Of a stretch of DNA of 64,000 bases, positions 37,700-41,079 are shown one piece after another. The notes beneath the pieces are model-generated. The model ran no database searches. It saw nothing but the letters and a program-made list of their open reading frames with translations, and was not told where the DNA came from. Every line of letters begins with the position of its first letter. Position 1 is the stretch's first letter. The DNA is from Alphaproteobacteria bacterium (lineage in GTDB: Bacteria > Pseudomonadota > Alphaproteobacteria > Caulobacterales > Aquidulcibacteraceae): the NCBI GenBank assembly GCA_016124655.1, contig WGNI01000015.1, forward strand, positions 1 to 64,000, in the 5' to 3' direction. The translations under genes were made by a program, and so were the position numbers.

Positions 37700-38044
37700 T
37701 TAGGCGACGCGGCGGAGCATCTGCTTGTTCAGGATCGGCGTCTGCGATTGCAGCAGGTCATTGTAGATCGCGTCGCGCTGGCGCGGATCGGCGACCGGAT
37801 AGAGGTGAATCTCCTTGGCGCCGAGCTGGTCGGCCGCGGCCCACATATCGTGGCGCGCGAGCGCATCGGCGAAATTCGACGTCTGCGCCAGAAATAGCAG
37901 CACAGGACCGCCGGCCTCCATCGTCGCGTCCGGGCTCGGCTTGACGAACATGTAGACGCCGCCGACGGGCTCCCATGCGCGTTTCGCGCGGGCCACGTCG
38001 ACTTCATACCACCGTCCGCTTTCGCCTTGCCAAGAGAAGCTCAC
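37700..38044 (-). CDS. Unknown small protein, possible degenerate GIY-YIG fold
   Basis: A 114-residue protein that I do not recognise with certainty. The order of a conserved-looking VGGVYMFVKPSPD, then VLLFLAQTSNFADALARHD, then RDAIYNDLLQSQTPILN resembles the GIY-YIG nuclease layout (GIY strand, YIG strand, arginine helix, final helix ending P-x-LN). The second tyrosine and the catalytic glutamate are not in place, so nuclease activity is doubtful. There is no signal peptide. The gene ends 12 bases from the convergent hydrolase gene. The family assignment is inference from pattern only. Confidence 0.6.
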   Translation of the reverse strand: MSFSWQGESGRWYEVDVARAKRAWEPVGGVYMFVKPSPDATMEAGGPVLLFLAQTSNFADALARHDMWAAADQLGAKEIHLYPVADPRQRDAIYNDLLQSQTPILNKQMLRRVA

Positions 38045-38114: not shown

Positions 38115-38915
38115 TCAGGGCGTGGGATCGAATTCCACAGTCCTCGCGTCCGCGGCGTCGAAGTATGGCGTCCAGAACACATCGCGCGCACGGCGCTGGC
38201 GCGCGATCTGGTCGTCGCGATCCAACATGACGATGCGGACATCCACGCCCGCGAGGTCCGGCGCGCCGGCGGCGCCGTTCGCGCTCTGCAGGAATGCGGC
38301 GAAGTCGGCATCGTCGGCGTACAATGAAAATCCCTGTGGATTATTTTCGAGCAGATCCGAGATCAGCACAAAGCGGCGCTGCGCAATCGAAGCAGTAAAG
38401 TCCATGTCCGCGGCCGCCGCGCGCACGCCGGCGGCAATCGGGGAGGCGGGCGCGTTGCGTCTGGACGTCGCGCGCCGCAGCGCACGATCGAGTGCGGCGC
38501 CGAAATCAGAGTCCCAGCGCTCCTGCAGGCGTTTCGGATTCTCGATCAGCGGATTGGCGACGTCGCCGCTGCGCGGGGCGCACAAGGAGGCCAGAATGTC
38601 TGGATCGCTCGGCCGGTCGGCGCGTATGCGCGCGATCGTCAGGCGTTCATACGGATTGAGGCGCGCGCGTTCCTGGTCAAGCACGGCGCGCACGCGGCGG
38701 CGGTGCCGCGGCTCGAGAGAATCGGTGGCGTCGACGAGGATGTAGGTGTGCGCTGCGACGGGCTGGTCACGGCGGCACAAGGTCTGCGCATCGATAGGCG
38801 GCGGACGCAGAAGGATGCCGGCAGCCGCCATCGTGGCCAGTGCGACCAATCCCAACGCCAAAAGAGCATATCCGAGCGCGTCGCGGCGGCGTTTGCGCGC
38901 GCGCCGCGTTCTCAT
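38115..38915 (-). CDS. Membrane-anchored von Willebrand A-like protein
   Basis: A 266-residue protein. A basic N-terminus (RTRRARKRRRD) precedes one transmembrane helix at about 13-36 (ALGYALLALGLVALATMAAA), leaving the rest in the periplasm. The domain begins HTYILVDATDSLEPRHRRRV, a DxTxS form of the MIDAS metal motif (Asp62, Thr64, Ser66). It continues with NPYERLTIARI and the later strand RRFVLISDLLENNPQG, as in vWA folds. Specific function is unknown. The start overlaps the stop of the upstream coiled-coil membrane protein gene (ATGA), so the two are coupled. Confidence 0.72.
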   Translation of the reverse strand: MRTRRARKRRRDALGYALLALGLVALATMAAAGILLRPPPIDAQTLCRRDQPVAAHTYILVDATDSLEPRHRRRVRAVLDQERARLNPYERLTIARIRADRPSDPDILASLCAPRSGDVANPLIENPKRLQERWDSDFGAALDRALRRATSRRNAPASPIAAGVRAAAADMDFTASIAQRRFVLISDLLENNPQGFSLYADDADFAAFLQSANGAAGAPDLAGVDVRIVMLDRDDQIARQRRARDVFWTPYFDAADARTVEFDPTP

Positions 38916-40240
38916 GGGGACCGTCCGCCAAGTCGGCTGCACGCGTCTTCCATATCCTGAGCAAGGCGCTGCAGATGGTCCGCGGCCAGCGCCTGGGTTT
39001 GCGCATCCTCGCGCCGGGCCGCGTCCAGCGCATCGCTTGCGGCGGTCAAGCGGTCGATCCGCGGCGGCGCGCCCTGCAGGCGGGGGCTGGAGACATCCTC
39101 CGGAATTGGCGTGCTTCGCGCGGCGGCGTTGGCGCGGCGATACTCCGCAACCAGATCGGCAGCACTTGCGGCGCAGGCGCGGGATTGCTCATCGAGCGCG
39201 GACAGGGCTGCGGCGGCTTCGTCGAAGGCGGCGATGCGGCCGTCGGCGGCCTTCTGCACTGTCGAGAGTGCTATTCGAACGGTCTTGCCGCAGGCGTCGA
39301 CGGCCTCCTCGATGGATTCGCGCGCTTCCTCCCGCAATGCGTCGGCGTCGTCGGCCGCGCGTTGGGCGGCGCGATCGAGCTTGCCGTAGTCGGGGTACGG
39401 ATCGTCGAAGCCGGAATAGCCTTTGAGCGCGGCAAACACCCAAACGCCGCCGCCCAGCATCAACAGGATCACGGCCTGGGGTTCGGTGAGGCCCAGGAGA
39501 TTGAAGGCGGTGGGGGCGTAGAGATCTTGGGCGCCGCCGAGGGTGAACTGACGCCAATTCGCAGCGAACCAATTGAGCGCGAGCCCGAGTGCTGCGCCGA
39601 TCGCCAAGGCGACACCGCCGCCGATGCGCGGCGCAAGACGAACATGCTGGAGGTAGCGCAGGCCGAGGAACCCGCTCAGGAAGCCTATCGCCACGTTCGC
39701 GCCGGATAGCCCCACCGCGATGGCCGCCCCGCCCAGAAGGCCTTGTTCGGATTCCTGGGCGAACAGCGTGGCGCTGAACAGCGCTTCAAAAACTGCGGCC
39801 ACGACAAGCAGGCCGGCCTGAAGCGCGGTGGACGCCGGATACACCGCCGCACGGCGCAAGCCGTTGCGTTCCCGGAAGCCGTCCAAATCCGTTCGCGCTA
39901 GAGCGGCGCGCGCTTGCGCTTGTGCGCATTGCGCGGCGAAGCGGCCTTCGATCTGACGAATGGCCAGCCTGGCTTCGGCGATCGGCGTTTCGAGATCGAT
40001 GTGGGGCGCTGCGGCGCGCATACGGCGCAGCAGGGCGTCGCTCAGGGCTGCGCCTTGGGCGTCGAGACGGGCTTGTGCATCGGCATGCGCGGCGAGGATC
40101 TCCTCTTCGGCGTCAGAGGGATCAGCGGCGCCCGAAGGCGGTTGCTCGGCGGCGCCGTCGGCGCGGGCGCGGGCGCGGACGTCCGCCGCGCGCGGCATCG
40201 GCCCCGCTTTCGAGACGGTGCGGCTGCGCGCGCTCGCCAT
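38912..40240 (-). CDS. Coiled-coil membrane protein of unknown family, partner of vWA-like protein
   Basis: A 442-residue protein that I do not recognise. A polar, alanine-rich N-terminal region of about 140 residues (EEEILAAHADAQARLDAQGA, later IEGRFAAQCAQAQARAALAR) looks helical and coiled. Four hydrophobic segments follow near 142-160, 168-193, 207-227 and 254-272. A long C-terminal helical region (about 285-442) is rich in Ala, Glu, Asp and Arg and probably forms a second coiled coil. The start used is MASARSR; the frame is open 21 codons upstream. It is translationally coupled to the vWA-like gene and divergent from the phosphatase gene by 74 bases. Confidence 0.72.
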   Translation of the reverse strand: MASARSRTVSKAGPMPRAADVRARARADGAAEQPPSGAADPSDAEEEILAAHADAQARLDAQGAALSDALLRRMRAAAPHIDLETPIAEARLAIRQIEGRFAAQCAQAQARAALARTDLDGFRERNGLRRAAVYPASTALQAGLLVVAAVFEALFSATLFAQESEQGLLGGAAIAVGLSGANVAIGFLSGFLGLRYLQHVRLAPRIGGGVALAIGAALGLALNWFAANWRQFTLGGAQDLYAPTAFNLLGLTEPQAVILLMLGGGVWVFAALKGYSGFDDPYPDYGKLDRAAQRAADDADALREEARESIEEAVDACGKTVRIALSTVQKAADGRIAAFDEAAAALSALDEQSRACAASAADLVAEYRRANAAARSTPIPEDVSSPRLQGAPPRIDRLTAASDALDAARREDAQTQALAADHLQRLAQDMEDACSRLGGRSP

Positions 40241-40314
40241 GCCTCCAAGCCCCCTAGTTCGATGCGCTACTCCTCCAACTGGCGGGGCGAAAGGCAAGCG
40301 CATAAAACGAAGCC

Positions 40315-41079
40315 ATGGATCACAAAGAGCTCCGCGACGCGCTGGCGCTGGCGCTTTCCACCGCCAAGGCCGCAGGCGCAGCGTTGCGCGCTCACCGCGG
40401 CGAATGGTCGGGCGTGGAGGCGGAAGCCGGGCGCGAGGTCAAGATCGACGCCGACAAGCGCGCGGAGGCGCTGATCGTTGCGGCGCTGCGGCGGGAAACG
40501 TCGTGGCCCATTCTCTCTGAGGAAGCGGGCTGGGTCGATGGCGGCGAAGCGCCGTTAATTTGGGCGGTGGATCCGTTGGACGGCAGCGTGAATTATGCGC
40601 TGGGCTATCCGCATTGCGCGGTGTCCATCGCGCTGGTGCAGGATCGCACACCCATTCTTGGCGTCGTGGACTGTTTCGCGCTGGACGAGACGTTCGCCGG
40701 CGCGGCCGGAGTGGGCGCAACGCTGAATGACGCGCCGATCCGCGTTTCGGCGGTCGCCGATCCAAAGCGCGGGGTGGTGCAGACCGGCATTCCCGCGCGC
40801 ATGGCGACCGATCCCGCGCGGCAGGCGGCGCTGATGCGCACGCTGATGACATGGCGCAAAGTGCGGATGATCGGCTCAGCGGCGAGCGCGCTAGCCAGCG
40901 TGGCGTGCGGGCGCGCGGATGCCTATTCCGAGTCCGGCTCCATGTTGTGGGATGTCGCAGGCGGGCTGGCGCTGGTGCGGGCGGCCGGCGGGGCGGTGCG
41001 GATCTCGGAGGGTGCGCTTGACGCGCCGCTGGACGTTTGGGCGAGCAACGGTCAGCCTGGGCTTGGTGCGCAGAACTAA
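40315..41079 (+). CDS. Inositol monophosphatase family phosphatase
   Basis: A 254-residue lithium-sensitive-type phosphatase. Metal ligands appear as EEAGWVDGG, WAVDPLDGSVNYALGYP and SMLWDVAGGLALVRAAGG, the three family motifs in order. Substrates in bacteria include inositol phosphate, histidinol phosphate and 3'-phosphoadenosine 5'-phosphate; the neighbourhood does not choose among them. Length is slightly short but complete. The next gene, a nucleotide-sugar dehydratase, begins 122 bases later on the same strand. Confidence 0.9.
   Translation: MDHKELRDALALALSTAKAAGAALRAHRGEWSGVEAEAGREVKIDADKRAEALIVAALRRETSWPILSEEAGWVDGGEAPLIWAVDPLDGSVNYALGYPHCAVSIALVQDRTPILGVVDCFALDETFAGAAGVGATLNDAPIRVSAVADPKRGVVQTGIPARMATDPARQAALMRTLMTWRKVRMIGSAASALASVACGRADAYSESGSMLWDVAGGLALVRAAGGAVRISEGALDAPLDVWASNGQPGLGAQN

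What the first reader, a model, noticed from the sequence alone, without database searches (positions are those of the whole stretch)
38115..40240. Unrecognised two-gene membrane module: coiled-coil four-helix protein plus vWA-like protein
Two translationally coupled genes encode a large coiled-coil inner-membrane protein and a membrane-anchored protein with a DxTxS metal motif and vWA-like strands. I recognise no described system with this pair. A periplasmic metal-dependent adhesion domain tied to a cytoplasmic coiled coil could be a sensor or envelope scaffold.
Basis: partly seen in the sequence, partly recalled or inferred. Interest (0 to 1): 0.65.

Follow-up and report, generated by a model that had tools for sequence, protein, structure and literature searches.

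The report
Conserved membrane pair, Zorya-like operon relatives
Two side-by-side genes make an undescribed pair of bacterial inner-membrane proteins; in other bacteria the same pair sits in an operon with an ion-motor resembling the anti-virus Zorya motor and often a secreted DNA-cutting enzyme, so it may be part of an unrecognised way of guarding the cell envelope against incoming DNA.

Summary
The pair is real, exactly at 38115-40240 (minus strand), overlaps by ATGA, and is adjacent in all 45 loci where both genes were detected. Gene 1 is a four-TM protein with long helical cytoplasmic ends; gene 2 is a single-TM protein with a periplasmic vWA domain (AF2 pLDDT 84; best VIA Z 12.2). Neither matches Pfam, NCBIfam, PHROGs or PADLOC. 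The metal site is not a canonical DxSxS: the conserved set is D64, S/T66, D67, S160, D189. In other Alphaproteobacteria the pair heads a four-gene operon whose third and fourth products are a ZorA/TolQ-like protein and a ZorB/MotB-like peptidoglycan-binding protein. In 12 of 19 such loci a nuclease (mostly SNase; one GmrSD_C/HNH) lies beside them or is fused to the ZorB-like protein. In the window's own order the pair stands alone, syntenic, sometimes decayed, with no true ZorA-like gene in 61 genomes. Best reading: a membrane sensor/adaptor pair that is the core of a Zorya-like, periplasmic-nuclease, candidate defence system, kept here as a reduced two-gene form. All function is inferred; nothing was tested experimentally.

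The parts
38912..40240 (-). Gene 1: four-TM inner-membrane protein with long N- and C-terminal helical (coiled-coil) cytoplasmic regions; 442 aa. Start could be further upstream (ORF opens at 40303).
   Evidence: invariant E152 within the predicted TM1, R195, R230, G167, G171
38115..38915 (-). Gene 2: single-pass (N-in) protein with periplasmic vWA-fold domain and two invariant cysteines; 266 aa
   Evidence: invariant C49, D64, C114, S160, S188, D189, W250 (numbered from the GTG at 38921)
38912..38915 (-). ATGA stop/start overlap between gene 1 and gene 2 (translational coupling inferred)
   Evidence: sequence; a 4-nt overlap is available in 18 of 45 related loci
37700..38044 (-). Small conserved ORF (114 aa) downstream on the same strand; directly after gene 2 in most family loci that have it; possible third gene, function unknown
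   Evidence: cluster of 7; no Pfam/NCBIfam match

Best explanation
The two genes encode a membrane sub-complex: a four-TM coiled-coil protein (gene 1) and a single-pass protein holding a disulfide-stabilised vWA domain in the periplasm (gene 2). The vWA domain senses or binds something in the periplasm (peptidoglycan strain, an incoming DNA or protein channel, or a partner protein), and gene 1 passes this across the membrane to its cytoplasmic helices. In its full form the sub-complex works with an ion-driven, peptidoglycan-anchored ZorA/ZorB-like motor and a periplasmic nuclease (SNase, or HNH of the GmrSD_C type), which would cut DNA as it enters through the periplasm. In the window's lineage the motor and nuclease genes are absent and the pair is kept at a fixed chromosomal site, so it would act as a stand-alone envelope sensor/adaptor. 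Shown by computation: conservation, adjacency, fold of gene 2, TM segments of gene 1, linkage to ZorA/ZorB-like genes and nucleases. Inferred: complex formation, disulfide, sensing, motor coupling, defence function.
For: Adjacency in 45 of 45 loci with both genes. vWA fold (AF2 pLDDT 83.7, pTM 0.81; VIA Z 12.2, rmsd 3.3, 166 aligned to INTS14, and Z 12.1 to Rpn10). Four-gene operons coil-vWA-ZorA-like-ZorB-like. Gene 4 matches PADLOC ZorB2 at E 1e-25 to 2e-33 in several members and its best PDB match is 8vvi, a MotB-like protein I take to be ZorB. Gene 3 carries GFLFTLxSL and FGxAxxSTIxGxxLR helices that fall in register on TolQ/ExbB. All 9 strong ZorA-like genomes in a 372-genome class sample are vWA-positive (P 1e-13). 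Nuclease beside or fused in 12 of 19 four-gene loci, with Pfam SNase or GmrSD_C confirmed on the fused proteins examined, and signal-peptide-like N-termini on the separate SNases. Some of these loci lie beside an integrase, resolvase or prophage terminase. In Zorya, peptidoglycan binding, ion flow and the ZorA tail are needed for phage defence (PMC11890865).
Against: No phenotype or interaction data exist. The window genome and its order have no true ZorA-like gene, so the Zorya analogy applies to relatives, not directly to this locus. The two-gene form lies in ordinary conserved synteny, unlike a defence island. Gene 3 homology to TolQ/ZorA is weak (hhalign probability 6.7%, E 0.0055). The AF2 model of gene 1 is only moderate (pLDDT 75.6, TM region roughly 50-76). 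No complex was modelled.
Confidence: 0.5

Rival explanations
1. Envelope-maintenance module: the pair (with or without motor) couples proton motive force or membrane state to the cell envelope, like Tol-Pal or the recently proposed TolQ-vWA force transducers, with no role in defence.
For: The two-gene form is vertically kept in conserved synteny in many Caulobacterales. In Gammaproteobacteria a homologous vWA (hhalign 97.9%, E 3e-13) sits with a membrane protein and a glycine-zipper OmpA-type lipoprotein. A 2025 study predicts vWA proteins as partners of TolQ-type motors (PMC12204202). The gene 1 model gives recurring but low matches to TolQ/ExbB (Z 8-9).
Against: The nuclease fusions and secreted nucleases in 12 of 19 four-gene loci are hard to explain by envelope upkeep. 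The vWA TM helix has no acidic residue and no histidine, unlike the two published TolQ-vWA classes. Patchy and decayed copies argue against an essential upkeep role.
Confidence: 0.3
2. Control of DNA uptake or nutrient use: the module handles extracellular DNA in the periplasm (natural transformation, conjugation entry, or DNA as phosphate source) rather than phage.
For: Nuclease partners are predicted periplasmic. One plasmid locus (L066) has an annotated ComEC-like gene about 6 kb downstream of the operon.
Against: No consistent link to com or phosphate genes in the neighbourhoods read.
Confidence: 0.12
3. The pair is a decaying remnant of the four-gene system, without present function in the window lineage.
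For: Degenerate copies in three genomes of one related genus: a fused remnant in G017 and split vWA frames in G029 and G036.
Against: Most copies are intact and conserve motif and TM residues across genera at about 43-61% identity.
Confidence: 0.08

Closest known systems
Zorya anti-phage systems (ZorA/ZorB core, types I-III)
   Same: Four-gene relatives carry a ZorB/MotB-like peptidoglycan-binding protein and a ZorA/TolQ-like protein with long cytoplasmic helical tail, with a nuclease as likely effector
   Different: Extra coil and vWA genes come first; the nuclease is predicted periplasmic rather than cytoplasmic; the TM acid of the ZorB-like protein is Glu, not Asp; the window pair itself lacks ZorA/ZorB
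TolQ-coupled vWA force transducers (PMC12204202)
   Same: IM-tethered periplasmic vWA protein encoded beside a multi-TM membrane protein
   Different: No SHLS/His motif and no acidic residue in the vWA TM helix; gene 1 is not detectably TolQ by profile comparison
SNIPE membrane nuclease (PMC13190303)
   Same: A membrane-placed nuclease aimed at DNA entering the cell (for the four-gene relatives, inferred)
   Different: SNIPE is one protein with cytoplasmic DUF4041 and GIY-YIG domains; here several proteins and SNase/HNH domains on the periplasmic side
FtsZl1-vWA-OmpA operons (PMC2875224)
   Same: vWA and OmpA-family proteins encoded together, envelope setting
   Different: Those contain a tubulin-like GTPase and mostly intact DxSxS; no FtsZ-like gene was noticed in the operons here, though none was searched for by profile

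Membership tests
vWA domain fold | Rossmann-type alpha/beta vWA fold | tested here: met
   AF2 model, VIA Z 12.2 (rmsd 3.3, 166 aligned) to INTS14 and Z about 12 to Rpn10; Foldseek top E 7.5e-4
vWA domain fold | canonical MIDAS DxSxS...T...D | tested here: not met
   D64, S/T66, S160 and D189 conserved, but the fifth position is variable (S in 2 of 23) and D67 is conserved instead
Zorya (window locus) | ZorA and ZorB genes in the operon or genome | tested here: not met
   Only two genes plus a small ORF here; no ZorA-like match in G000 and no true one in 61 genomes of relatives, the few hits covering only the coil part. ZorB was not searched genome-wide; genome is about 85% complete
Zorya (four-gene relatives) | ZorB-like MotB protein with TM and peptidoglycan-binding OmpA domain | tested here: met
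   PADLOC ZorB2 E 1e-25 to 2e-33 in several members, weaker in others; best PDB match 8vvi
Zorya (four-gene relatives) | ZorA-like MotA/TolQ protein with cytoplasmic tail | tested here: inconclusive
   TM motifs align in register to TolQ/ExbB but hhalign probability is 6.7%, E 0.0055; PADLOC ZorA matches mostly in the tail
Zorya (four-gene relatives) | ZorC/D or ZorE effector | not tested
   Not searched by name; SNase or GmrSD_C nuclease found instead
TolQ-vWA transducer (PMC12204202) | SHLS/His or acidic residue in the vWA TM helix | tested here: not met
   No D/E and no His in the predicted TM of 23 sequences
MotA/TolQ/ExbB (gene 1) | sequence or fold similarity of the TM core | tested here: inconclusive
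   hhalign probability 0.3%; VIA Z 8-9 to TolQ/ExbB, below the range trusted for helical models

The most novel reading that the evidence does not exclude
The pair is the conserved sensing core of an undescribed class of trans-envelope immune machine: a periplasmic vWA sensor plus four-TM coiled-coil transducer that drives a ZorAB-like ion motor and releases or positions a periplasmic nuclease to destroy DNA while it crosses the periplasm; the Caulobacterales version is a domesticated two-gene sensor.
Probability: 0.3. Interest if true: 0.85.

Novelty: new variant of a known kind. Interest (0 to 1): 0.6.

Why it matters
Zorya is thought to sense phage attack through peptidoglycan and to deliver the signal to cytoplasmic effectors. 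A related operon with a dedicated periplasmic vWA protein and a nuclease placed in the periplasm would be defence acting before DNA reaches the cytoplasm, and would give a route to ask what these motors sense. The pair itself is a recurrent alphaproteobacterial family without annotation.

Tried and rejected
Sequence matches to Pfam, NCBIfam, PHROGs, PADLOC and PDB for the two window proteins gave nothing usable (coil-only matches in 59). Viral contigs gave no relative of gene 2. The small downstream ORF looked GIY-YIG-like by eye, but PF01541 did not match it even at E 1: rejected. Gene 1 as a TolQ/MotA homologue: profile comparison negative, structural matches only at helical-background level. 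Gene 1 versus the gammaproteobacterial membrane partner: only a marginal match around TM1-2 (probability 5%, E 0.007), so not claimed. FtsZl1 operons considered and set aside. Literature searches found no description of this pair or of the four-gene operon, but the library is open-access only.

Full report
What is there. The window holds two minus-strand genes. Gene 1 runs 40240 to 38912 (442 aa; the ORF could open at 40303) and gene 2 runs 38915 to 38115 (266 aa from its ATG). They overlap by ATGA. The divergent neighbour at 40315 looks like an inositol-monophosphatase-type gene (from its sequence; no family search was run on it), and a 114-aa ORF follows on the same strand at 38044-37700.

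Conservation. Among 61 genomes (own, same family and same order) 24 have gene 2 and 23 have gene 1. Fetched neighbourhoods, scanned with profiles of both proteins, gave 45 loci with both; in every one they are neighbours in the same order on the same strand, and a 4-nt overlapping start is available in 18. In a phylum sample 18 of 398 genomes, and in a class sample 18 of 385, have gene 2. Named relatives of the window form are Hyphomonadaceae, Caulobacterales and other alphaproteobacterial MAGs.

Gene 2. An AF2 model from 16 window-lineage sequences has pLDDT 83.7 and pTM 0.81. Residues 51-266 match vWA domains: VIA Z 12.2, rmsd 3.3, 166 aligned to INTS14, and Z about 12 to Rpn10 and to a bacterial vWA; the best Foldseek E-value is 7.5e-4. 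The N-terminus is basic and followed by one TM helix, so by the positive-inside rule the vWA domain is periplasmic. Two cysteines (49, 114) are invariant in 23 sequences, consistent with a disulfide. The metal site departs from DxSxS: D64, S/T66, D67 (21 of 23), S160, S188 and D189 are kept, while position 68 varies. Motif numbers count from the GTG at 38921, two codons before the ATG; model numbers count from the ATG.

Gene 1. Hydropathy and the model give four TM helices near 138-160, 168-196, 202-234 and 254-276, flanked by long helices on both sides. Both termini should be cytoplasmic (inference from charge). E152 lies within TM1 and is invariant, as are R195 and R230. The model is moderate in the TM part (pLDDT roughly 50-76). 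Structural matches are at helical background level; TolQ and ExbB recur at Z 8-9, which is not enough to claim homology, and profile comparison with TolQ/ExbB/MotA proteins was negative.

The wider system. tblastn into plasmids found gene 2 relatives in Paracoccus, Rhizobium, Microvirga and Tistrella. In the five regions read, the pair is followed by two more genes: a protein with TM helices and a long helical tail, and one annotated in some records as an OmpA-family protein. Chromosomal loci of other Alphaproteobacteria show the same order. The fourth product matches PADLOC ZorB2 at E 1e-25 to 2e-33 in several members and more weakly in others, and as a profile its best PDB match is 8vvi, titled as a MotB-like protein and taken by me to be ZorB. 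True Zorya II proteins in this class score 245-255 bits against the same models, so these are relatives rather than members. Its TM reads GLTxAExxLLLxFCLLL with an invariant Glu. The third product has GDNxYYxGFLFTLxSL and FGxAxxSTIxGxxLR helices, which fall in register on the TolQ/ExbB TM2 and TM3, with weak statistics (probability 6.7%, E 0.0055). In a class sample of 372 genomes all nine with strong ZorA-like hits carry gene 2 (hypergeometric P 1e-13); the hits lie next to gene 2 in the fetched loci.

Nucleases. Of 19 loci with the pair and a strong ZorA-like gene, 12 have a nuclease: seven as a separate SNase-family gene (upstream of gene 1 in three, downstream of gene 4 in three, on the opposite strand in one) and five fused to the C-terminus of the ZorB-like protein. 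Pfam confirms SNase on three of the fused proteins and GmrSD_C on another, L093; the remaining fusion, L151, rests on my SNase profile. The six same-strand separate SNases have signal-peptide-like N-termini. Neighbours include a phage integrase (L096), a resolvase (L093) and a phage terminase small subunit with a DNA methylase (L098).

The window form. In Caulobacterales the pair stands alone in conserved synteny, and no true ZorA-like gene was found in 61 genomes of the order; the few hits cover only the coil part. Within one related genus some copies are broken: a fused remnant (L051) and split vWA frames in two genomes. Assembly error is not excluded for these. So the pair is inherited but seems dispensable. 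A diverged second copy occurs in several genomes.

Gammaproteobacterial version. A homologous vWA protein (hhalign 97.9%, E 3e-13) is encoded with a TM protein and a glycine-zipper OmpA-type lipoprotein. The membrane partner shows only a marginal link to gene 1. One locus of this type lies beside a type I restriction-modification set (L165).

Mechanism. In Zorya, ZorA and ZorB form a 5:2 ion-driven complex; peptidoglycan binding by ZorB, ion flow and the ZorA tail are needed for defence (PMC11890865). By analogy the four-gene relatives would be an ion-driven motor with an added vWA/four-TM module and a periplasmic nuclease. That the nuclease acts on DNA in transit is inference; SNIPE (PMC13190303) shows that membrane-placed nucleases can cut DNA during injection, from the cytoplasmic side. 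For the window pair I infer a stand-alone sensor or adaptor role. A 2025 study predicts other vWA proteins as partners of TolQ-type motors, with no deletion phenotypes reported (PMC12204202); the present vWA lacks their TM signatures.

Verdict. Confidence that the pair forms a complex is about 0.75, that the four-gene form is a Zorya relative about 0.8, that the four-gene form is defensive about 0.5, and that the window form is defensive about 0.2; these are judgements.

Noticed in passing
window 37700-38044 (-): Conserved 114-aa ORF directly downstream of gene 2 in most related loci that have it (cluster of 7), in one locus separated from it by another gene; matches no Pfam or NCBIfam family and not GIY-YIG.
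   Followed up: partly
L051 (G017), G029:C4:281801-282491, G036:C8:185523-186304: Broken copies of the pair in three genomes of one related genus: an in-frame remnant fusing coil and vWA, and split vWA frames.
   Followed up: partly
L086-L092 and L165: Gammaproteobacterial-type three-gene version: vWA protein, TM protein, glycine-zipper OmpA-type lipoprotein; L165 lies beside type I restriction-modification genes.
   Followed up: partly
L096, L151, L152, L155 (SNase) and L093 (GmrSD_C): Nuclease domains fused to the C-terminus of a ZorB-like peptidoglycan-binding protein.
   Followed up: yes
L098:2495-4292: Phage terminase small subunit and N6/N4 DNA methylase next to a four-gene locus.
   Followed up: partly
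L059, L060, L056 and other second copies: Diverged second copy of the pair (about 27-31% identity to the window vWA) in several genomes.
   Followed up: no
L209: ZorA-like gene (A7 E 1e-26) followed by a protein with an AE-containing TM helix like the ZorB-like proteins, with the gene only 223 bases from the start of the fetched stretch, so the pair could be missing only because of a contig break.
   Followed up: no
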